32,100 nt of DNA from Erysipelotrichaceae bacterium (GTDB taxonomy: Bacteria; Bacillota_I; Bacilli_A; RFN20; CAG-826), in contig JAAYSH010000034.1 of NCBI GenBank assembly GCA_012518415.1, forward strand, positions 1-32,100, read 5' to 3'. Shown here piece after piece: positions 7,331 to 26,825 of the stretch; within the stretch, counting starts at the first letter, position 1, and each line of letters starts with the position of its first letter. A program made the translations under genes and the position numbers. Under the pieces are notes generated by a model. It did not search any database. It was not told where the DNA came from and was given only the letters and a program-made list of their open reading frames with translations.

Positions 7331-7849
7331 ATGAAGAAGTTGTCAATAGTCGCTAAAACATTCATAATCGCATCAGGCTTAACCGCCTTCGGTTTATTGC
7401 TTTTTGGAGTATTATGGGTGTTTCAAGTAAATTACTCCCAAGGAATGTTCTTTGGTTGGTTACTTGGTGCGGCAGTAGGAATGATAAACTTTGGACTTAT
7501 CGTTTTACAAGCGCATTTAACGGTACGTTCACTTAATAAGCGAAACGTTAGCGTTTATGCGAGTTTTTTATTCTTAGCCCGCTTACTACTTGCTGGTGGT
7601 GCGCTTGCACTATCAGGTTGGCTTACTTATAAACATCAAACACCTGAAACGACCTTGTTTAATTTATGGACGACGTTTGCAGGCTTAGTTTTAACCCAAT
7701 TTAGTGTTCGCTTCTCTGGCGCGAAATCACCTTGGAGTCAAGACTCTCCCCTAAAAGAAGGTGAAGGCGATAGCGAAGGGATATTCACTTTAAAAGATTT
7801 ATTTTCAAAAGATAGTACAACTAATGAAGAAGAGGATGATATCGAATAA
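7331..7849 (+). CDS. atpI: ATP synthase protein I-like membrane protein
   Basis: A 172-residue protein with four predicted transmembrane helices (about residues 8-30, 37-60, 75-98 and 108-126), placed first in the ATP synthase operon. AtpI proteins help assemble the c-ring or serve in ion uptake, and position plus topology support this call more than sequence motifs do. The last 40 residues form an acidic cytoplasmic tail ending EEEDDIE, longer than usual for AtpI. The stop overlaps the atpB start by one base (TAATG), which implies translational coupling. The RBS is AAAGG at 7315-7319. Confidence 0.7.
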   Translation: MKKLSIVAKTFIIASGLTAFGLLLFGVLWVFQVNYSQGMFFGWLLGAAVGMINFGLIVLQAHLTVRSLNKRNVSVYASFLFLARLLLAGGALALSGWLTYKHQTPETTLFNLWTTFAGLVLTQFSVRFSGAKSPWSQDSPLKEGEGDSEGIFTLKDLFSKDSTTNEEEDDIE

Positions 7850-8655
7850 TGCTTATAAAAGTCTTTGCAAATAGTAATTGGTTTAGTGAATTTCTTCATA
7901 ACTTACCAAGTGAAATTTATGTGACTTTTTTAATTGTCATAGTCGTATTAATTTTGGGTATTATCGTTTCAATAAAAGCAAGAAAAGCCGATCCGTTAGA
8001 AAAACCAAAAGGCATTTTGCATTTGGTCGAAATACTAGTTACCTTTTTTGATAACTTAAAAGAAAGTGCGATGGGTAAAGGCTTTAATGGGATGGCACCT
8101 TACTTTATGGGTGTGGCTATTTTTATATTTTTGAACTTCCTCGTTGGTTTAGTTGGCTTACCAACACCAACAGCAAGTTTGATTGTTCCAATGGCACTTG
8201 CTTTGCTTACGGTTATATTAATTCATGCGACATCAGTACGTACGAATAAGTGGGGATACTTTGAGCGGTATACATCGCCGAGTATTTTATTTTTGCCGAT
8301 GAATATTATTTCGCAGTTTTCACCACTTATCTCTTTATCTTTCCGTTTATTTGGTAACACCTTGGCAGGTTGGTCGATTATGACCCTTATTTATTGGGCG
8401 CTGGAAATGGGAAGTAACTTTATTTTCGGCTTCTTTATGCCTGCAGGAGTTGCCTCAATTTGGTTAGCGCCATTAATTACACCATGGTTGCACTTATATT
8501 TCGATATATTCAGCGGCCTTATTCAAACATACGTGTTTGTAATGCTTTCGATGATGTTTATTGCCCAAGAAGGACCTGAAGAAGAAGATGTCCCGGTGCA
8601 GAAGTTTGTCGATAAAGCAGGAAATACAATTACAACATTAGCAAAGGAGAATTAA
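7849..8655 (+). CDS. atpB: F-type ATP synthase subunit a
   Basis: Membrane stator subunit that forms the two ion half-channels against the c-ring. The decisive motif is LSFRLFGNTLAG at residues 163-174, in which Arg166 is the essential stator arginine that displaces the ion from the c-subunit carboxylate. Several hydrophobic helices precede it, and the final helix region (IQTYVFVMLSMMFIAQE) is typical. The length of 268 is slightly above average. It starts on the stop codon of atpI. Nothing in this subunit alone settles Na+ against H+. Confidence 0.95.
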   Translation: MLIKVFANSNWFSEFLHNLPSEIYVTFLIVIVVLILGIIVSIKARKADPLEKPKGILHLVEILVTFFDNLKESAMGKGFNGMAPYFMGVAIFIFLNFLVGLVGLPTPTASLIVPMALALLTVILIHATSVRTNKWGYFERYTSPSILFLPMNIISQFSPLISLSFRLFGNTLAGWSIMTLIYWALEMGSNFIFGFFMPAGVASIWLAPLITPWLHLYFDIFSGLIQTYVFVMLSMMFIAQEGPEEEDVPVQKFVDKAGNTITTLAKEN

Positions 8656-8658
8656 TTT

Positions 8659-8934
8659 ATGCTAGTAAACTTTTTACAATCACTTCCAGTTTTAGCTGGA
8701 GCATCAACGAGGGATGGAATTATTGCGCTTGCCGCTGCAATCGCTGTTGCCCCGGGGATGGTGAACGCCTGGGGAGAAGCGAAAATTGCAATTAAGGCAA
8801 TTGATGCAATGATGCGTGTTCCCGAACAAACTAACAATATTCGGAATACGATGATTCTCGGTATCGCTCTAGTCGAAACAACCGCGATTTACGCTTTACT
8901 TGTCGCAATTTTAATTATTTTCATTTTAGGATAA
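8659..8934 (+). CDS. atpE: F-type ATP synthase subunit c, Na+-type ion site
   Basis: A two-helix hairpin that forms the rotor ring. Helix 2 carries the ion carboxylate Glu73 in LVETTAIY. Aligned on the polar loop (Arg53-Val-Pro55), Glu40 falls on Gln32 of the Ilyobacter c subunit, and Glu73, Thr74, Thr75 and Tyr78 fall on Glu65, Ser66, Thr67 and Tyr70, the Na+ ligands. The Glu40 to Glu73 distance of 33 residues matches exactly. Two carboxylates at these places are known from the Fusobacterium nucleatum Na+ rotor. Helix 1 lacks the full GxGxGxG series: it reads G33-M-V-N-A-W-G39, with Val35 and Ala37 in glycine places, so ring size could be unusual. AAAGGAG is the RBS. Confidence 0.95.
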   Translation: MLVNFLQSLPVLAGASTRDGIIALAAAIAVAPGMVNAWGEAKIAIKAIDAMMRVPEQTNNIRNTMILGIALVETTAIYALLVAILIIFILG

Positions 8935-8946
8935 TTGGAGGAAAAC

Positions 8947-9522
8947 GTGCTTAACAATTTATTAAGAACAAGCATCGTTATTTTGGCAGAGGCTGAGCAA
9001 ACTGGCCCCTTTACTGCAGAAGATTTTGTTGACAAATTATTCCCAAGCGGCTTTCTTTGGGGCGCAGTAACGCAAATACTTGCCTTTTTAGTACTCATTT
9101 TAATCGTGTGGAAACTTTTATATAATCCAGTTAAAAAGATTTTAGTAAAACGGCAAAACACTGTTGAAGAAAACATTAATTCCGCTGAAATTATGCGTGA
9201 AGAAATGGAAAAGCAACTTGCGGAATCAGAGGAACTAATTAAGGCTGAACGGCAAAAAGCTCAAGCACTCGTCGCGGAAGCGCTTAAACAAAGTGAAAAA
9301 GCAAAGGAAGAACTCATTGAACAAGCTAAGGCTGAAATCGAAATTGAAAAAGCTAAAGCTCGTGAAGAAATTGCGCAAGCAAGAAAAGATGCAGAAGAAG
9401 AAATTAGAAGCGAAATTATTAATGTCGCCTTATTAGCATCAAAAGAAATTATTGGACGAGAAATTAACGAACAAGATAGCGAACGACTTGTTAATGATTT
9501 TATAAAGGATATGACTAACTAG
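8947..9522 (+). CDS. atpF: F-type ATP synthase subunit b
   Basis: Peripheral stalk subunit that links the membrane to F1. One transmembrane helix lies near residues 37-58 (ILAFLVLILIVWKLL), followed by the basic junction NPVKKILVKRQ and a long Lys/Glu/Ala-rich coiled coil to the C-terminus. I chose GTG at 8947: GGAGG at 8937-8941 is the only good RBS, and the TTG at 8935 would put the RBS inside the coding region. The protein is then 191 residues. Unlike b subunits of many mycoplasmas there is no lipobox cysteine. It follows atpE by 12 bases and abuts atpH. Confidence 0.92.
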   Translation: MLNNLLRTSIVILAEAEQTGPFTAEDFVDKLFPSGFLWGAVTQILAFLVLILIVWKLLYNPVKKILVKRQNTVEENINSAEIMREEMEKQLAESEELIKAERQKAQALVAEALKQSEKAKEELIEQAKAEIEIEKAKAREEIAQARKDAEEEIRSEIINVALLASKEIIGREINEQDSERLVNDFIKDMTN

Positions 9523-10065
9523 ATGGCTGATGTAGCAATTACTTATGCACAGGCACTTTTAAATATTGCCATTGAAGAAAATGATATCGACCGTTATTTA
9601 GCGGCGAATGATTTGATGTTGCACTTATTTGAAGAACAACCTGAACTATATGCATTGCTAACATCAGAGTTCATCTCAAAAAGCGACCGATTAGGGCTAG
9701 TTGATAAATTTTTAACTTCAATTAATTTACCAAATTATGTGAATTTTATTAAAGTTCTCATTGATCGGAAGCGACTATCAAGTTTTATTCCAATCGCATT
9801 CGAGTTTAAACGACTCGCCCATACGGTACAAAATAAAGTGGAGGCAATCGTTTACTCAACAACACCACTACAAGAAGAGAAATTTCAGCAATTACAGCTC
9901 ACATTATCAAAAAAACACGGCAAAACCGTATTACTTAGAAATGAAATTGATGAACAACTACTAGGTGGAATCAAAGTCGTTATTGGCGATGAAGTATATG
10001 ATGGCTCAATCAGCGGTAAACTCCAACAATTACAAGCAAAGCTACACCAAGGAAAGGCGGAATAG
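9523..10065 (+). CDS. atpH: F-type ATP synthase subunit delta
   Basis: OSCP-type stator protein that joins subunit b to the top of the alpha/beta head. The N-terminal helical domain begins AITYAQALLNIAIEE, as in other delta subunits, and the C-terminal part contains DEQLLGGIKVVIGDEVYDGS (residues 144-163), the family signature near the end. The length of 180 is standard. The ATG follows the atpF stop directly, with AAAGGA inside the end of atpF as a distant RBS, so expression is likely coupled. Confidence 0.95.
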   Translation: MADVAITYAQALLNIAIEENDIDRYLAANDLMLHLFEEQPELYALLTSEFISKSDRLGLVDKFLTSINLPNYVNFIKVLIDRKRLSSFIPIAFEFKRLAHTVQNKVEAIVYSTTPLQEEKFQQLQLTLSKKHGKTVLLRNEIDEQLLGGIKVVIGDEVYDGSISGKLQQLQAKLHQGKAE

Positions 10066-10068
10066 TAT

Positions 10069-11591
10069 ATGAAATTTAAAACAAATGAAATTAGTGCTCT
10101 AATCCAAAAGGAAATAGAAAACTTTGAAGCGAAAGTTCAAAGCGCGGACGTCGGAACAGTCGTGACAGTTGGTGATGGTATTGCCATCATTTACGGCTTA
10201 GACGATGCAATGCTTGGCGAACTTTTAGAATTTCCTGGTGGAGTTTATGGAATGGTTCAAAACTTAGAACCAGACAATGTTGGCGCCGTTCTTTTAGGTA
10301 ATGATGTCAAAATTAAAGAAGGCGATATTGTTAAAAGAACAAACCGGGTTGTCGAAGTTCCGGTCGGTGACGCCATGCTTGGCCGTGTTGTTAATGCTCT
10401 TGGTCATCCAATTGATGGAAAGGGAGTAATTGAAACGAAAAAATCTCGACCAATTGAAAGAATTGCGCCAGGAGTTATGAAACGAGAACCTGTTAATAAA
10501 CCACTACAAACGGGAATTAAAGCAGTCGACTCGATGGTACCAATTGGACGCGGGCAACGAGAGTTAATTATCGGAGACCGCCAAACTGGTAAAACTGCAA
10601 TCGCTGTTGATACGATTATTAATCAAAAGAACGAAAATGTTTACTGTGTTTATGTCGCAATCGGACAAAAACAAAGCAGTGTTGCGGATATAAACGAAAG
10701 ATTAATCGAAAAAGGCGCAATGAGTTATACAACAATTGTTTCAGCATCCGCAAGTGAAGCGGCACCGATGCAAATGATTGCCCCATTCGCAGGTATGGCA
10801 ATTGCAGAAGAGTGGCTTGAACAAGGAAAAGATGTCTTAATCGTCTTAGATGATTTAAGTAAGCACGCAGTCGCATATCGAACTTTATCTTTATTACTAA
10901 AACGCTCACCTGGAAGAGAAGCATATCCTGGTGATATTTTCTATCTCCATTCAAGATTATTAGAGCGGGCATGTAAATTAAACGAAGAAAATGGTGGTGG
11001 ATCAATTACGGCGCTACCAATTATTGAAACACAAGCAGGCGATCGCTCCGCTTATATTCCTACAAACGTAATCTCGATTACGGATGGACAAATTTTCTTA
11101 TTAACTGAATTGTTTAATGCGGGTCAACGCCCAGCGATTGATAGCGGACAATCAGTTTCACGTGTTGGAGGCAGCGCGCAAATTAATGCAATGCGGCAAG
11201 TCGCAGGTCAGTTGAAAATTCAACTTGCCAACTACCGCGAATTACAAAGTTTCGCCCAATTTGGTAGTGATTTAGATGAATCAACAAGACGCGTACTAAA
11301 TCACGGGCGTGTTTTACTAGCAGTATTAAGACAAAACCAATACGAACCATATCCAATTGAACGACAAATATTCGAATTGTTTGTCGCGCAACATAATTTT
11401 TTAGAACAACTCAGCGATGATGATATCGGGCCAGCACTTACCGACGCGTATAACGCTTTAAAAGTTCAACATCCGGAATATTTAAACGAAATCGTTGAAG
11501 AAGAAATTATTAGTGATGAATTAAAAGAAAACTTATTAGCATTTATTAAAGACTTCTTTGAAACAAGAGATAATGAGGAGGTTGAAGTTTA

Positions 11592-11592
<1 letters not shown>
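10069..11592 (+). CDS. atpA: F-type ATP synthase subunit alpha
   Basis: Non-catalytic nucleotide-binding subunit of F1. The N-terminal beta barrel is followed by the Walker A motif GDRQTGKT at residues 169-176. Walker B is within [12 protein letters not shown], and the segment [13 protein letters not shown] holds the arginine finger that completes the beta catalytic site. The 507-residue length is normal. The C-terminal 40 residues are rich in Glu and Asp. GGCGGA just upstream is the RBS. The stop overlaps the atpG start (TAATG). Confidence 0.98.
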
Positions 11593-13918
<2,326 letters not shown>

Positions 13919-13921
13919 AAT

Positions 13922-14350
13922 ATGAAACTATTTCCAATCCAAATACTTACTCCTGACCGCGAAGTATTTCGCGGAGATGTGAGAAGGTTACACGTTCCCA
14001 CTGAAAGTGGACCTTACACTCTCCATGCGAATACTTATCCTTTTATCGTAATGATTAAATATGGAAACTTATGGTTAGAAACAACCGAAGGTCGAAGTGA
14101 CTACGCGATAAGTGGTGGTATTTTGATTGTGCAGAAGGAAATAGTGACTGTACTAGCAGAAGCGATTGAACGTGCAGATGAAATTGATGTCGACCGTGCC
14201 CTCGCTGCTAAAGAGCGAGCCGAAAGTAGACTTGCAAAAAAGTCGGAAAAAATCGATATAAAACGCGCACAAACTGCTTTGTTAAGAGCGCTTAACCGTC
14301 TCGATGTCGCTGGTTATGAAGCGACTTCAATATATAAGTTTAAAGACTAA
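13922..14350 (+). CDS. atpC: F-type ATP synthase subunit epsilon
   Basis: Small rotor subunit that couples gamma to the c-ring and can inhibit ATP hydrolysis. The N-terminal beta sandwich (FPIQILTPDREVFRGDV, residues 4-20) and the middle AISGGILIVQKEIVTVLAE segment are typical. The C-terminal helical part, rich in Ala, Arg and Lys, is the regulatory helix pair. The length of 142 is standard. It starts three bases after atpD and closes the operon. Confidence 0.95.
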   Translation: MKLFPIQILTPDREVFRGDVRRLHVPTESGPYTLHANTYPFIVMIKYGNLWLETTEGRSDYAISGGILIVQKEIVTVLAEAIERADEIDVDRALAAKERAESRLAKKSEKIDIKRAQTALLRALNRLDVAGYEATSIYKFKD

Positions 14351-20473: not shown

Positions 20474-21520
20474 ATGTGGAGGTATATCCTTAGAAGAATT
20501 GGATTAATATTTGTTACAGCATTTATAATTCTTTCACTCACATATTTATTAATGAAACTGTTACCAATGGATAAACCGCTTGGTCGCGCTGATGTCCAAT
20601 TAGCGTATTATGAAAACCAAGTTAACCTTGGCTACATGGTTAGAGTCCATTATGAAAAAGGCTCGCCAAGACCAGCTAGTGATGTCATTGTCGTTAATGA
20701 ACTTGATCCAAGCCAACCATACTTATATAATGCAGTTCCTGTATTTCAACAGTATGTTTCATGGATTAAAAACATTTTTACTAAATGGCATTGGGGAACA
20801 TCATCAGTAATCGAACCTGGATCACCAGCTATGTTAGTTATTCGAAGAAGATTACCAGTTTCTTTAAAATTAAATATTTGGGCGATGGTAGTTTCTGTTC
20901 CGTTAGGTTTTCTTTTTGGTATATGGGCTGCTCTAAAGAAAAACACATTAACTGACCATATTATTACAATTGTTACGATGGTATTTATTTCAGTTCCATC
21001 ATTTGTAATTATCACATTCTTAATGAAGTGGTTTGGTTTTGATACAAACCTTTTACCAACTCAGTGGCCATCGGTGTTAGCACCGGCCTGGGAAAGGTTC
21101 AAGGGCTATATTATTCCAGTTGCCTGTTTGTCGTTTGGAACAATCGCGGGATTTACAAGAATGACAAGGGCAGAATTAACCGAAATTATGTCTAGTGAGT
21201 TTTTATTACTAGCTAGAACAAAAGGGTTAACCAAAACTCAATCTGTTTTACGTCATGCTTTACGTAATGCACTTGTACCACTCGTACCAATGATTATTGG
21301 TCAATTTGTTGGATTACTCGGTGGTTCAATGGTTTTAGAAAACCTTTATGGTATTCCAGGAATCGGTAGTTTATTTACCGAAGGTATTACGCAAAAAGAC
21401 TACAACCTCGTTATGGTTGTTATGTCGGTATATACAATGATTGGTTTATTTACAACATTAATCGTTGATGTTAGTTACGGTATTGTTGACCCGCGAATTA
21501 GAATGGGGGCGAGAAAATAA
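20474..21520 (+). CDS. oppB: Oligopeptide ABC transporter permease OppB
   Basis: Inner permease subunit of the transporter, 348 residues against about 306-310 in typical OppB. TM1 is at residues 10-30. Residues 31-115 form an enlarged external loop, and the core with five more helices follows from about 130. The EAA coupling loop is EFLLLARTKGLTKTQSVLRH (residues 242-261), which docks on an ATPase, and the family end VDVSYGIVDPRIR is present. AGGAGG (20461-20466) is seven bases before the ATG. The stop overlaps oppC (TAATG). Confidence 0.93.
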   Translation: MWRYILRRIGLIFVTAFIILSLTYLLMKLLPMDKPLGRADVQLAYYENQVNLGYMVRVHYEKGSPRPASDVIVVNELDPSQPYLYNAVPVFQQYVSWIKNIFTKWHWGTSSVIEPGSPAMLVIRRRLPVSLKLNIWAMVVSVPLGFLFGIWAALKKNTLTDHIITIVTMVFISVPSFVIITFLMKWFGFDTNLLPTQWPSVLAPAWERFKGYIIPVACLSFGTIAGFTRMTRAELTEIMSSEFLLLARTKGLTKTQSVLRHALRNALVPLVPMIIGQFVGLLGGSMVLENLYGIPGIGSLFTEGITQKDYNLVMVVMSVYTMIGLFTTLIVDVSYGIVDPRIRMGARK

Positions 21521-23580
21521 TGGCAAATAAAAAAGATAAGCAAAATTTATTTGATTATGAACAATCAAAAAAGAGTGCGCGTGTATTTTTAGACCCTTCG
21601 AGTAGCGAAGAAATATCGCAAGAAGATTTTAAGTTTGTTCAAATGGATAAGTCAATCCATGATACAAAATTTGATACGCAACCAACTACGTTCTTTAAAG
21701 ATGCGCTTAGACGTTTTGTTAAGAACAAATCCTCAGTTGTCGCATTTATCATTTTATCAGTGATTATTTTAATGGCTATTTTTGTCCCGGTTTTCAACGA
21801 TAACCCAATTGACCGCAACTTCCCGGAGCAAAGATTCTTAACTCCCCGGTGGCGCGGTTTTGAAAACGCAAGTGTTTTTAATGGAAAACGGACATTTAGA
21901 AATGCTTTAGTTGTTAAACCTGATCCAGACGATCAGTCAACTTGGTATCCAGCAGGAAGGAAAAAAGAAGCTGTTGTAGCTGGTAGTGAAAGGTATTTTG
22001 ATGATACCATTTCTGGTACACCATCGATTTATGCAACTGGTGGAAGTCTTTCAATCCGTACTGATACAAGAGAAAGAAGTAGCGGACTTATTTCCTATCC
22101 AGAGCAATTAGATTTTTCTGCTAATAGTGATTTTCAAATACAAATGTATTTACCAGAAGATAAAAACACATATTCTGTTGGACTCGGCGGCGTCGATGTT
22201 GTCCGCGAATCAATTGCTGAGTATGCAGTTTTCATTAGTGTTGAGTATGAACCAGGTGAGGAGGAGATTGTTTACTTAACTGATTTCTCATCACAATTTG
22301 GTGAAATCATCATTGATGATGTCAATGCTAAAGTACTTGCTAATCGTCCTGATGGCGTTAGTGAAACAACCTTTAACGCTAAGGTTGGTTATGAACTTAA
22401 AACTGTTGCAGAAGGTGACTTCCCAATCTTATTTGTCGATAAGTTTATCTTTGAAAATAAACTTGATACGACTCAAAATTTAGAAAGACTCTCATGGTCA
22501 GATGCAAACGCACTACTCCTTCGTCCAGTTACAAGACCTGAAAGCATTCCAGTTGCGGAGTGGCGCCCAACAAACTGGAGCATTTACGGCAGTGGTACAC
22601 GTTCACTTGACCGCGCTAACGTTACACGGGTAACGTTTGAATATGATGAATACTTAGATGTTTTTGGTCTAAGAAAAAATTATGTTATATCAGGTACAAA
22701 AGTGACCGAATATATCAATGAAGGCTGGATTGAGTATGACTTTAATGAAGGCGTTTCATCATTTAAATTAACCGAATTAGGCGAAGAACACTCACCACTA
22801 CGAAGTGTTTCTGCACAAATAGACCTCCCAGGTGCAACAGGTACAATTTACGAACTTACTGGTGATGTAGTTATGTATCGTTACTGGGGTTATGATAATA
22901 TCCCTTATTATATTTTTGGTACAAACCATAGTGGTCGAGACCAGTTTAAAGTTGTTTTCTCTGGGCTTCGAACATCATTGTTACTTGGTTTAATTACGAC
23001 TGTTATTTGTGTAACAATTGGTATTATTTGGGGTTCAATCTCTGGTTATTACGGTGGCTGGGTTGATCTTATAATGGAAAGGATTACTGATATTTTAAGT
23101 GGTGTTCCTTACATTGTTGTGATGACTCTATCAATTTTATTACTTGGTAATAACTTCGGAGTCTTTATCCTTTCATTAGTCTTAACCGGCTGGATTGGTA
23201 TTTCATCTAGGACAAGGGCTCAGTTTTATCGATATAAAGGTCGAGAGTTTGTCTTAGCATCAAGAACATTAGGTGCAAAAGACAGCCGACTTATTTTCAA
23301 ACACATTTTACCAAACGCAATTGGACCAATTATTACTGGTAGTATCTTAATGATTCCAAGCATTGTGTTTACTGAAGCTAACATTGCTTATTTAGGTTTA
23401 GGTTTACAAGGTATGCCAAGCTTAGGTGTTGCCCTATCAGAAGCACAAAAATACTTGGCGTCTGACCCGTATTTAATCGTATCTTCGGCAATTGTCGTTT
23501 CAATCCTAATGATTTGTTTCAACTTGTTTGGTAACGGTTTACGTGATGCGTTTAACCCATCATTGAAAGGAGCGGAGTAG
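21520..23580 (+). CDS. oppC: Oligopeptide ABC transporter permease OppC with a giant external domain
   Basis: Second permease subunit. A 70-residue cytoplasmic N-tail leads to TM1 (about 71-91). The normal OppC core restarts at FGTNHSGRDQFKVVFSGLRT (466-485), with the EAA loop EFVLASRTLGAKDSR (576-590) and the C-terminal helices. Between TM1 and the core lie about 370 residues (95-465) with no hydrophobic helix, rich in beta-type segments and aromatic, Asp and Ser residues. By topology this domain is outside the cell. Total length is 686, against about 300 for ordinary OppC. The core motifs are intact, so the transporter should work. The origin of the insert is unknown. Confidence 0.93.
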   Translation: MANKKDKQNLFDYEQSKKSARVFLDPSSSEEISQEDFKFVQMDKSIHDTKFDTQPTTFFKDALRRFVKNKSSVVAFIILSVIILMAIFVPVFNDNPIDRNFPEQRFLTPRWRGFENASVFNGKRTFRNALVVKPDPDDQSTWYPAGRKKEAVVAGSERYFDDTISGTPSIYATGGSLSIRTDTRERSSGLISYPEQLDFSANSDFQIQMYLPEDKNTYSVGLGGVDVVRESIAEYAVFISVEYEPGEEEIVYLTDFSSQFGEIIIDDVNAKVLANRPDGVSETTFNAKVGYELKTVAEGDFPILFVDKFIFENKLDTTQNLERLSWSDANALLLRPVTRPESIPVAEWRPTNWSIYGSGTRSLDRANVTRVTFEYDEYLDVFGLRKNYVISGTKVTEYINEGWIEYDFNEGVSSFKLTELGEEHSPLRSVSAQIDLPGATGTIYELTGDVVMYRYWGYDNIPYYIFGTNHSGRDQFKVVFSGLRTSLLLGLITTVICVTIGIIWGSISGYYGGWVDLIMERITDILSGVPYIVVMTLSILLLGNNFGVFILSLVLTGWIGISSRTRAQFYRYKGREFVLASRTLGAKDSRLIFKHILPNAIGPIITGSILMIPSIVFTEANIAYLGLGLQGMPSLGVALSEAQKYLASDPYLIVSSAIVVSILMICFNLFGNGLRDAFNPSLKGAE

Positions 23581-23581
23581 T

Positions 23582-25153
23582 ATGGAAAAATTACAAGCAA
23601 ATGTTCAACAACAAGGCGAAGTGGTTATTGATGTTAAAGATTTAAAAATATCTTTTTATACTGATCATGGTCGTGTCCGTGCAGTCCGCGGTATTTCATT
23701 TCAACTTCGTAAGGGTGAAATTCTTTGTATTGTTGGAGAATCGGGTTCAGGTAAATCGGTAACGACAAAAGCAATTATGGGAATCTTACCTGGTAACGGA
23801 AGAATCGATGGCGGTTCAATTATGTACGAAGGTGAAGATTTAACGAAAGTATCCGAAGAAGAGTTCCACCGGATTCGTGGACATAAAATCGGTATGGTTT
23901 TCCAAGACCCATTATCAAGTCTTAACCCGATTATGCGGGTTGGAAAGCAAATTACTGAAGCGATTATTTTAAATAGTAATAAAATCAAAAGGTACTATAA
24001 TGACTTAATCGCTAAGGAATTTGTTGACTATAAAAACGCAGTTTCTAATAAAAAACGTTTACTTCATAATGCGAATTTAGAACTCCGAGAAGCAAAACGA
24101 AAAAAAGAAACAGAGATTACGAAAATTAAAGAAAACAATAAATTATCTCGTGAAGAAAAATCTGCAGCAATCGCTCAAGAAAAAGAACAATATAAGGAAG
24201 CTAAAACCTCAATAAGAAACGAGAAAAAGGCTATCCGCGAAAGTTCTGATGCTGAGATTAAAGAAAAGAAACAGCAACTAAACTTGGTGAAAAAATCTGC
24301 TAGAGTAAAAGTTAAACAGAAAAAACGCGAACTTAAAGAAGAACGCGATAAAGAAGTCGCAGCATTGCAAGCTAAGCTTAAAGCGACAGAAGATGAACAA
24401 CAACAAGAGGCGATCAAAGCCGAAATTAAAAAAGTTAAAGAAACTTATGTTAATTCGATAAAGATTACAAGAAGAGCTGCAAAACAACGGGCCATTCGTG
24501 TGATGACTGAGGTCGGTATTCCAAATGCTGAACGTCGCTATAAGCAATATCCATTTGAATTCTCAGGTGGAATGCGTCAACGCGTTGTTATTGCGATTGC
24601 TTTAACACAAGACCCTGATGTCTTGATTCTTGATGAGCCAACAACCGCCCTTGATGTTACGATTCAGGCGCAAATTCTTGAGTTAATTAATGAACTTAAG
24701 GAAGAAAGAAACTTATCATGTATATTTATTACGCACGACTTAGGTGTTGTTGCTAATATGGCTGATCGAGTTGCCGTTATGTATGCTGGTAAAATTGTTG
24801 AAAGTGCAACGGTTAATGAATTATTTTATAACCCACAACACCCATACACATGGGCGCTGCTTTCATCAATCGCTGACGTTGATACAGAAGAGCGACTTGA
24901 AGCAATTCCAGGTACTCCACCAGATATGGTTAATCCACCTAAAGGAGATGCCTTCTCATTAAGAAACAGATACGCGCTCGCGGTCGATTATGAATATGAA
25001 CCACCAACTTATCAGGTGAGTCCAACTCACTTTGCTTCAACGTGGTTACTTGATCCGCGCGCACCAAAAGTTGAACGGCCAGCAATTGTTGAAGAAAGAA
25101 TTAAAAACTCGCTGAAAGCCGCGAAGGAAGCGGGGGTGAAATTAGATGAGTAA
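23582..25153 (+). CDS. oppD: Oligopeptide ABC transporter ATPase OppD with coiled-coil insertion
   Basis: Cytoplasmic ATPase. Walker A is GESGSGKS (52-59), the Q-loop is FQDP (Gln108), the signature is FSGGM (327-331), Walker B is ILDEP (349-353) and the switch His is 385. Between Q-loop and signature, at the helical subdomain, residues about 131-300 are a Lys/Glu/Ala-rich helical stretch that looks like a long coiled-coil hairpin, absent from normal OppD. The C-terminal tail keeps GTPPDMVNPPKG, but all cysteines of the usual CPFxxRC-type motif are replaced (GDAFSLRNRY). GGAG precedes the ATG, one base after oppC, and it overlaps oppF by 8 bases. Confidence 0.94.
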   Translation: MEKLQANVQQQGEVVIDVKDLKISFYTDHGRVRAVRGISFQLRKGEILCIVGESGSGKSVTTKAIMGILPGNGRIDGGSIMYEGEDLTKVSEEEFHRIRGHKIGMVFQDPLSSLNPIMRVGKQITEAIILNSNKIKRYYNDLIAKEFVDYKNAVSNKKRLLHNANLELREAKRKKETEITKIKENNKLSREEKSAAIAQEKEQYKEAKTSIRNEKKAIRESSDAEIKEKKQQLNLVKKSARVKVKQKKRELKEERDKEVAALQAKLKATEDEQQQEAIKAEIKKVKETYVNSIKITRRAAKQRAIRVMTEVGIPNAERRYKQYPFEFSGGMRQRVVIAIALTQDPDVLILDEPTTALDVTIQAQILELINELKEERNLSCIFITHDLGVVANMADRVAVMYAGKIVESATVNELFYNPQHPYTWALLSSIADVDTEERLEAIPGTPPDMVNPPKGDAFSLRNRYALAVDYEYEPPTYQVSPTHFASTWLLDPRAPKVERPAIVEERIKNSLKAAKEAGVKLDE

Positions 25154-26825
25154 TAAAGAAGTAAACCAATTTGATATTGACGCAGTTGTAGAGAAATTTT
25201 ACATAAGTCTTTTCCAAAGAGAAGAAGGACAATTATTTGCACTCGAAAAAGAACAAAGTGAAGCGTTACAAGAAGCTCAAGAAGAAGCGAATAAAGAAAT
25301 TAGTGAACTAGAAGAAAAACTTCAAGAACTTAAAGACGCTGAAAAAAGTGCTGAAAATAAAGGTTTAATTAAAAAACAAAAAAGTAAAATTAAAGCTGCG
25401 AGACGCTCTGCCAAAGCTCGCGACCGGCTAATAAAAGCTGAATTTAAACCAAGACTTAAAAAAATAAGGCAAATTTTAAAGGTCGCTAGAGGAAGAGCAG
25501 ATATTTTAAAAAAGGCGCGATACAATGAATTTAAAGCGTGGCAAAAAGCTGGCTTTGAAGATATTGAAAACCGTCCGTCAGAGATTGAAAAGCTACGTTT
25601 CGACTCTTATAAACCAGAATTAGTAGAAAATGATGTCGTCCTTAGTGTTCGCCACCTCAAGCAATATTTCGAAAGCGGGTTTGGAGCAAACAAACTAAGG
25701 ACCAAAGCGGTTCATGACATTTCATTTGATATTCATAACGGTGAAGTATTTGGGCTTGTTGGTGAATCAGGCTGTGGTAAAACAACAACTGGTCGCTCGA
25801 TTATTCGTCTTTACGATATAACTTCAGGCAGTATTTACTTTAAAGGCCACCGGATATCAGGTGGAACAAGATGGAATGAGAAAGAAATTAAGTGGAAACG
25901 AATTCGCTTGCGTCAGGAAATCAAAGAACTCAAAGCTAAGATGAAAGAGGAACTAGATGACGCTGAAGCGATTGATGAAGATGTTACCGAAGCAAGATCA
26001 GAACAAATCAAAGATCATTACAATAAAAAAATTGCGGCGATTGAGTATGAGATCGATGAAATCGTTCGAGTCCAAAAAACAAAAATTAAACTCATTAGAT
26101 ACGACAATAAAAACTATGATGAAGAATTCATGAGTCAAATTCAAATGATTTTCCAAGATCCAACAGACTCGCTCGATCCAAGGATGACAGTCGAAGATGC
26201 GATTCAAGAAGGATTACAAATCCAAGGATATCGCAATAAGGCAGCAAATTCTAACAAAGTTTCTGATGTTTTAGACCAAGTTGGCTTACTTCCAGAGTAT
26301 GCCTCACGTTATCCGCATGAATTTAGCGGTGGTCAAAGGCAAAGAATTGGGATTGCTCGAGCGATTGTTATGCAACCAGAATTTATGATTTGTGATGAAC
26401 CAGTCAGTGCATTAGACGTTTCAATTCAGGCGCAAGTTATTAACTTATTAAGTGACTTACGTGATGAAATGGGATTAACCTTACTATTCGTTGCACATGA
26501 CCTCTCATTAGTTAAATACTTCTGTGACCGCATTGCAGTTATGTATTTTGGAAGAATTGTTGAATTAGCAACGAGTGAAGATTTATTTGCTAATCCACTT
26601 CATCCATATACAAAATCACTTATTAGTGCGATTCCAAAACCAGATCCAATTAGTGAAAAAGCTCGGAAGAGAATTCACTATAATCCAGCGGAAGCGCATA
26701 ATTATGCCGAAGAAGGTAACCCAACATTGACCGAAATTACGCCTGGACACTTTGTTCTTGCTAATGAGGTCGAACTTGAGCGATACCGCAAGGAAATCGA
26801 AGATAGAACGAAAAGTAAAAAATAA
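25146..26825 (+). CDS. oppF: Oligopeptide ABC transporter ATPase OppF with two coiled coils
   Basis: Second ATPase of the transporter, 559 residues against about 330 normally. Residues 1-155 are an N-terminal Lys/Glu-rich helical region, and the ABC domain begins about 163. Walker A is GESGCGKT (206-213), the Q-loop is MIFQDP (Gln337), the signature is FSGGQ (393-397), Walker B is MICDEP (414-419) and the switch His is 451. A second coiled-coil insertion covers about 245-325, between Walker A and Q-loop, so not at the same place as in OppD. The C-terminal cysteine motif is also missing. The start overlaps the oppD stop (ATGAGTAA), with GGGGGTG as RBS. Confidence 0.94.
   Translation: MSNKEVNQFDIDAVVEKFYISLFQREEGQLFALEKEQSEALQEAQEEANKEISELEEKLQELKDAEKSAENKGLIKKQKSKIKAARRSAKARDRLIKAEFKPRLKKIRQILKVARGRADILKKARYNEFKAWQKAGFEDIENRPSEIEKLRFDSYKPELVENDVVLSVRHLKQYFESGFGANKLRTKAVHDISFDIHNGEVFGLVGESGCGKTTTGRSIIRLYDITSGSIYFKGHRISGGTRWNEKEIKWKRIRLRQEIKELKAKMKEELDDAEAIDEDVTEARSEQIKDHYNKKIAAIEYEIDEIVRVQKTKIKLIRYDNKNYDEEFMSQIQMIFQDPTDSLDPRMTVEDAIQEGLQIQGYRNKAANSNKVSDVLDQVGLLPEYASRYPHEFSGGQRQRIGIARAIVMQPEFMICDEPVSALDVSIQAQVINLLSDLRDEMGLTLLFVAHDLSLVKYFCDRIAVMYFGRIVELATSEDLFANPLHPYTKSLISAIPKPDPISEKARKRIHYNPAEAHNYAEEGNPTLTEITPGHFVLANEVELERYRKEIEDRTKSKK

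What the first reader, a model, noticed from the sequence alone, without database searches (positions are those of the whole stretch)
8659..8934. Two-carboxylate, sodium-type ion site in the ATP synthase c subunit
With the loop R53-V-P55 aligned to R-Q-P of Ilyobacter, Glu40 replaces Gln32 and Glu73-Thr74-Thr75-Tyr78 replace Glu65-Ser66-Thr67-Tyr70, with the spacing exactly kept. Glu at both places is the arrangement described for the Fusobacterium nucleatum Na+ rotor. A sodium-driven ATP synthase would be a notable trait in a lineage near Mollicutes.
Basis: partly seen in the sequence, partly recalled or inferred. Interest (0 to 1): 0.6.

Follow-up and report, generated by a model that had tools for sequence, protein, structure and literature searches.

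The report
Sodium-type rotor in bacterial ATP synthase
The rotor subunit of this uncultured gut-type bacterium's ATP synthase carries the full set of residues that bind sodium in known sodium-driven enzymes, a trait that is normal for its whole class; what is unusual is that the glycine pattern which sets the size of the rotor ring is broken in its family.

Summary
The c subunit (8659-8934) aligns without gaps to the Fusobacterium nucleatum Na+ rotor: E40=E32, L71=V63, E73=E65, T74=S66, T75=T67, Y78=Y70. It meets the published Na+-ligand rule. What points to Na+ is the T66/T67/Y70 set. Nor is the trait remarkable near Mollicutes: in other families of the class 40 of 48 c subunits sampled have the full set, nearly all with Gln32. 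Glu32 is the mark of this order (48 of 51). The genome has an Rnf complex as a possible Na+ pump, but no membrane pyrophosphatase, oxaloacetate-decarboxylase beta subunit or complex I/Mrp was found. Best reading: an F-type ATP synthase that uses Na+, with Glu40 permanently protonated (about 0.72). A side finding is more interesting. The glycine motif, thought to hold Na+ rings at 11 subunits, is broken here (G-V-A-G-A) and in 31 of 32 c sequences of the family, often with a proline, while 24 of the 32 keep the full Na+ set. Ring size is untested.

The parts
8659..8934 (+). atpE, F-type ATP synthase c subunit (91 aa), two-helix hairpin
   Evidence: PF00137 over cut-off, 50.3 bits; phmmer to 3ZK1, 1YCE, 4BEM
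8755..8781 (+). residues 33-41, position of the glycine motif (I. tartaricus G25-G33): G33-V35-A37-G39-A41, motif broken
   Evidence: alignment
8776..8778 (+). Glu40 (GAA) = Glu32 of F. nucleatum, Gln32 of I. tartaricus
   Evidence: ungapped alignment; codon
8815..8823 (+). R53-V54-P55, cytoplasmic loop (R-Q-P of other c subunits)
   Evidence: translation; alignment
8869..8892 (+). L71-V72-E73-T74-T75-A76-I77-Y78: carbonyl ligand, main Glu, hydroxyl ligand, water ligand, Tyr lock
   Evidence: alignment to 3ZK1 and site description in PMC3692424
7331..7849 (+). small membrane protein in the place of atpI; no family match
   Evidence: no Pfam or NCBIfam hit; position and hydrophobic stretches only
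7849..8655 (+). atpB, a subunit (268 aa), candidate essential Arg166 in SFRLFGN
   Evidence: NCBIfam ATP synthase subunit A profiles, E to 4e-52 but below cut-off; motif
8935..9522 (+). atpF, b subunit
   Evidence: TIGR01144 over cut-off
9523..10065 (+). atpH, delta subunit
   Evidence: TIGR01145 over cut-off
10069..11592 (+). atpA, alpha subunit
   Evidence: TIGR00962 over cut-off
11592..12503 (+). atpG, gamma subunit
   Evidence: TIGR01146 over cut-off
12512..13918 (+). atpD, beta subunit
   Evidence: TIGR01039 over cut-off
13922..14350 (+). atpC, epsilon subunit
   Evidence: TIGR01216 over cut-off

Best explanation
This is the c subunit of a complete F1Fo ATP synthase whose rotor binds Na+. 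Inferred mechanism: in each site Na+ is held by Glu73 and Glu40 of one subunit and by the Thr74 hydroxyl and the Leu71 carbonyl of the next, with a water on Thr75, and Tyr78 locks Glu73. Glu40 stays protonated and acts like the Gln32 it replaced, so only Na+ moves. Na+ expelled by the Rnf complex would drive ATP synthesis; if Rnf runs short the enzyme would export Na+ at the cost of ATP. Shown here: the residues, the intact operon, the rnf genes, and the spread of the trait. Inferred: Na+ binding, protonation state, direction of operation, and the ion moved by Rnf.
For: All positions of the published Na+ rule are filled (Gln/Glu32, Glu65, Ser/Thr66, polar 67, with Tyr70; PMC2359735). Ungapped match to the F. 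nucleatum Na+ ring 3ZK1, E 1.2e-9. A. woodii c2, part of a Na+ rotor, also has Glu-Thr-Thr (ion specificity from PMC3692424). The full set is kept in 24 of 32 c sequences of the family, 14 of 19 in the rest of the order and 40 of 48 in other families of the class. rnfC-D-G-E-A-B-like cluster in the same genome. In the order, Rnf and the Na+-pump subunit OAD-beta tend to replace each other: together in 2 of 58 genomes, Fisher p = 0.014, not corrected for relatedness. A V-type K subunit checked in one relative (G034) keeps the E. hirae Na+-site residues.
Against: No biochemistry. Residues predict ion use imperfectly: N-type enzymes predicted to be Na+ included the B. pseudomallei ring that proved H+-specific, though that ring has Met at position 67. 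All c-rings characterised by 2013 intrinsically prefer H+; Na+ use depends on a large excess of Na+. Whether this Rnf pumps Na+ or H+ is unknown, and its RnfB-like protein is short. No Na+/H+ antiporter of PF03553 or symporter of PF00209 was found in the genome, and no Na+ riboswitch in the window or at the rnf locus. The genome is 96% complete, so absences are not final.
Confidence: 0.72

Rival explanations
1. A proton-driven rotor that carries a second, permanently protonated carboxylate, like the B. pseudomallei N-type, S. pneumoniae or mycobacterial rings; the Na+ ligands are relics.
For: Two-carboxylate sites are known in H+ enzymes. Position 67 has drifted to Cys, Ala or Val in several relatives (7 of 32 in the family), so selection on the full set is not absolute.
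Against: The H+ examples lack part of the set: M. tuberculosis has Asp32-Glu65-Ala66-Ala67, B. pseudomallei has Met at 67. The window keeps Thr66, Thr67 and Tyr70.
Confidence: 0.13
2. A dual-ion rotor that takes Na+ or H+ according to conditions, as reported for Methanosarcina acetivorans, whose predicted site also has two glutamates.
For: Two-Glu precedent with mixed coupling under physiological conditions (PMC3692424). Ser66 to Thr and Val63 to Leu may shift selectivity (inference).
Against: No sequence feature examined here distinguishes it from the Na+ reading; F. nucleatum with the same pair moves only Na+.
Confidence: 0.15

Closest known systems
F. nucleatum Na+ c11 ring (3ZK1/3ZK2), two-carboxylate site
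   Same: Glu32, Glu65, Thr67, Tyr70 and hydroxyl residue at 66; ungapped alignment, 26 of 70 residues identical
   Different: Thr for Ser66, Leu for Val63, Val for Ala64; glycine motif G-V-A-G-A instead of G-G-G-G-G
I. tartaricus Na+ c11 ring (1YCE) and A. woodii c2 (4BEM)
   Same: Na+ ligand set; A. woodii c2 shares Glu-Thr-Thr
   Different: Gln32 there, Glu here; glycine motif intact there
B. pseudomallei N-type c17 ring (H+)
   Same: two glutamates, Thr at 66, Tyr at 70, altered glycine motif
   Different: Met at 67 there, Thr here; N-type operon accompanies an F-type operon there, here the only PF00137 match of the genome is this gene

Membership tests
F-type ATP synthase c subunit | PF00137 hairpin with central carboxylate in helix 2, in an atp operon | tested here: met
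   PF00137 50.3 bits over cut-off 24; operon a-c-b-delta-alpha-gamma-beta-epsilon
Na+-type rotor (rule of PMC2359735) | Gln/Glu32, Glu65, Ser/Thr66, Ser/Thr/Gln/Arg67 | tested here: met
   E40, E73, T74, T75; rule
Na+-type rotor (rule of PMC2359735) | Tyr70 lock | tested here: met
   Y78
Two-carboxylate Na+ rotor (F. nucleatum) | Glu at both 32 and 65 | tested here: met
Two-carboxylate Na+ rotor (F. nucleatum) | glycine motif GxGxGxG (accompanies 11 subunits in known Na+ rings; not what defines Na+ binding) | tested here: not met
   motif is G-V-A-G-A; context
Two-carboxylate Na+ rotor (F. nucleatum) | ring of 11 subunits | not testable with these tools
   needs the purified ring
Na+-driven ATP synthase | Na+ dependence, Na+ protection from DCCD | not testable with these tools
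   needs purified enzyme or membranes
N-type ATPase | second ATPase operon next to a standard F- or A-type operon | tested here: not met
   single PF00137 match in the 96%-complete genome
Organism with a Na+ pump | Rnf, OAD-beta or membrane pyrophosphatase that moves Na+ | tested here: inconclusive
   Rnf genes present, others not found; the ion moved by this Rnf could not be tested

The most novel reading that the evidence does not exclude
The rotor is Na+-binding but not an 11-mer. In this family the glycine motif of helix 1, shared by the Na+ F-type rings characterised up to 2013 (all c11), is eroded (G-V-A-G-A here, V-P-A-G with a proline in many relatives) while the Na+ ligands are kept. 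These would be natural Na+ rotors with a different subunit number, probably larger, and so a different Na+/ATP ratio, suited to a weak Na+ gradient.
Probability: 0.4. Interest if true: 0.6.

Novelty: new member of a known kind. Interest (0 to 1): 0.38.

Why it matters
It suggests that sodium energetics is the norm in a class of small-genome gut bacteria that includes Mollicutes-like genomes, where a 2020 genome survey described Rnf as a proton pump (PMC7301438). The family also offers natural rotors to test whether Na+ binding and the 11-subunit ring are linked, a question left open in PMC3692424.

Tried and rejected
Glu40 outside the ion site: rejected, alignments to two Na+ rings are ungapped. 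Trait special to this genome: rejected. Membrane pyrophosphatase, OAD-beta and complex I/Mrp as ion pumps: not found. Na+ riboswitch at the atp or rnf genes: none found. PF00209 and PF03553 transporters: none found in this genome. A c-subunit tree with position 32 masked does not resolve deep branches; it only agrees broadly with one main Gln-to-Glu change, with possible further ones in two other families. No structure prediction was run: the tool returns no coordinates or inter-subunit distances, so it could not settle the site.

Full report
Observation. The ORF at 8659-8934 is a 91-residue c subunit, the only PF00137 match in the 0.96-Mb, 96%-complete genome. It lies in an ordinary atp operon, 7331-14350: an unassigned small membrane protein in the place of atpI, then a, c, b, delta, alpha, gamma, beta, epsilon. 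Against PDB chains it aligns without gaps to F. nucleatum 3ZK1 and I. tartaricus 1YCE. The correspondences are E40=32, L71=63, V72=64, E73=65, T74=66, T75=67, Y78=70.

Does it mean sodium? In F. nucleatum, Na+ is bound by Glu32, Glu65, Ser66 and the Val63 carbonyl plus a water held by Thr67, with Tyr70 as a lock, and Glu32 stays protonated (PMC3692424). The same paper stresses that two-carboxylate sites also occur in H+ enzymes of S. pneumoniae and M. tuberculosis. The B. pseudomallei N-type ring, with Glu30 and Glu61, was measured to be H+-specific (PMC5376962). So the second glutamate is not diagnostic. The older rule is more useful: Gln/Glu32, Glu65, Ser/Thr66 and a polar residue at 67 (PMC2359735). 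The window meets all of it. M. tuberculosis (Asp-Glu-Ala-Ala), Spirulina (Ala66, Leu67) and B. pseudomallei (Met at 67) do not. A. woodii c2, from a Na+ rotor, has the same Glu-Thr-Thr.

Spread. Among F-type c sequences from 58 genomes of the order, Glu32 is in 31 of 32 in the family (one Asp) and 17 of 19 in the rest of the order; the two exceptions are Met-type second copies. In 48 c sequences sampled from other families of the class, position 32 is Gln in 45 and Glu in 3. Positions 65 and 70 never vary, and 40 of 48 hold the complete Na+ set. That sample favours the best-scoring hits of the class search and includes some close relatives, so the fractions are rough. The simplest history (inference) is that the class is ancestrally sodium-type with Gln32 and that this order replaced Gln by Glu. 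A tree with position 32 masked is broadly in line but poorly resolved. The V-type K subunit checked in one relative (G034) also matches the E. hirae Na+ subunit (E 5.7e-33), including PGTQG and Gln and Glu at the site.

Ion pumps. The genome has an rnf cluster on contig C63 (L084): RnfC, RnfD, RnfG, two PF02508 subunits and a short RnfB-like protein, with an ApbE-like protein downstream. No membrane pyrophosphatase, OAD-beta or complex I/Mrp subunit was found. Across 58 genomes Rnf is in 33, the pyrophosphatase in 14, OAD-beta in 10, at least one in 43 and none in 15. Rnf and OAD-beta rarely occur together (2 genomes; p = 0.014, relatedness not corrected). This fits two alternative Na+ pumps, but the ion moved by this Rnf is not shown.

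Glycine motif. PMC3692424 notes that all Na+ F-type c-rings then characterised had 11 subunits and a glycine-rich motif in helix 1, and left open whether the link is necessary. In B. pseudomallei an altered motif goes with a c17 ring. The window has G-V-A-G-A. In its family only 1 of 32 c sequences keeps GxGxGxG, against 44 of 67 in the other groups (p = 7e-10, relatedness not corrected). Proline sits at position 27 in 11 of 32. Yet 24 of 32 keep the complete Na+ set, and 23 of those 24 have a broken motif. A ring that differs from c11 is plausible; its size cannot be predicted from this.

Names. The nearest named relatives of the c subunit come from uncultured Bacilli and Erysipelotrichaceae MAGs, one titled goat rumen. 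The exact lineage is not given by the tools; placement near the RF39-type Bacilli is my inference.

Verdict. It is a member of a known kind and ordinary for its class. The broken glycine motif is the part worth an experiment.

Noticed in passing
L084:4945-7020 (G000:C63); L085:7598-9649: RnfD is about 690 aa: beyond the RnfD domain (residues 5-333) it has a long C-terminal extension with two similar copies, the last matching FMN_bind weakly. The same-genus genome has it too.
   Followed up: partly
L084:9201-9524; L085:4902-5225: RnfB-like protein of only 107 aa with the FeS domain but no ferredoxin-type cluster domain, in both genomes of the genus.
   Followed up: partly
relatives G003, G008, G014, G017, G024, G035, G037, G042, G044, G047, G054: Asp at position 64 directly before the main Glu (LDET/LDES), a possible third carboxylate near the ion site; not in the window (Val72).
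   Followed up: no
L131 (G086): three near-identical c-subunit genes in tandem.
   Followed up: no
L056, L057 (G035, G047): second, different c subunit with Met at position 32 and Val at 67 beside the usual Glu32 copy elsewhere in the genome.
   Followed up: no
window 20474-26825: oligopeptide-type ABC transporter genes with large charged, probably coiled-coil inserts in both ATPase subunits (23582-25153, 25146-26825) and a large insert in the 686-aa permease (21520-23580); read from the sequence only.
   Followed up: no
window 11592-12503: gamma subunit carries an acidic stretch ([22 protein letters not shown], roughly residues 198-220), read from the sequence only.
   Followed up: no
15 of 58 genomes of the order (e.g. 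G011, G013, G022, G027): no Rnf, OAD-beta or membrane pyrophosphatase found although nearly all have an ATP synthase, which may then work as an ATP-driven ion pump.
   Followed up: no
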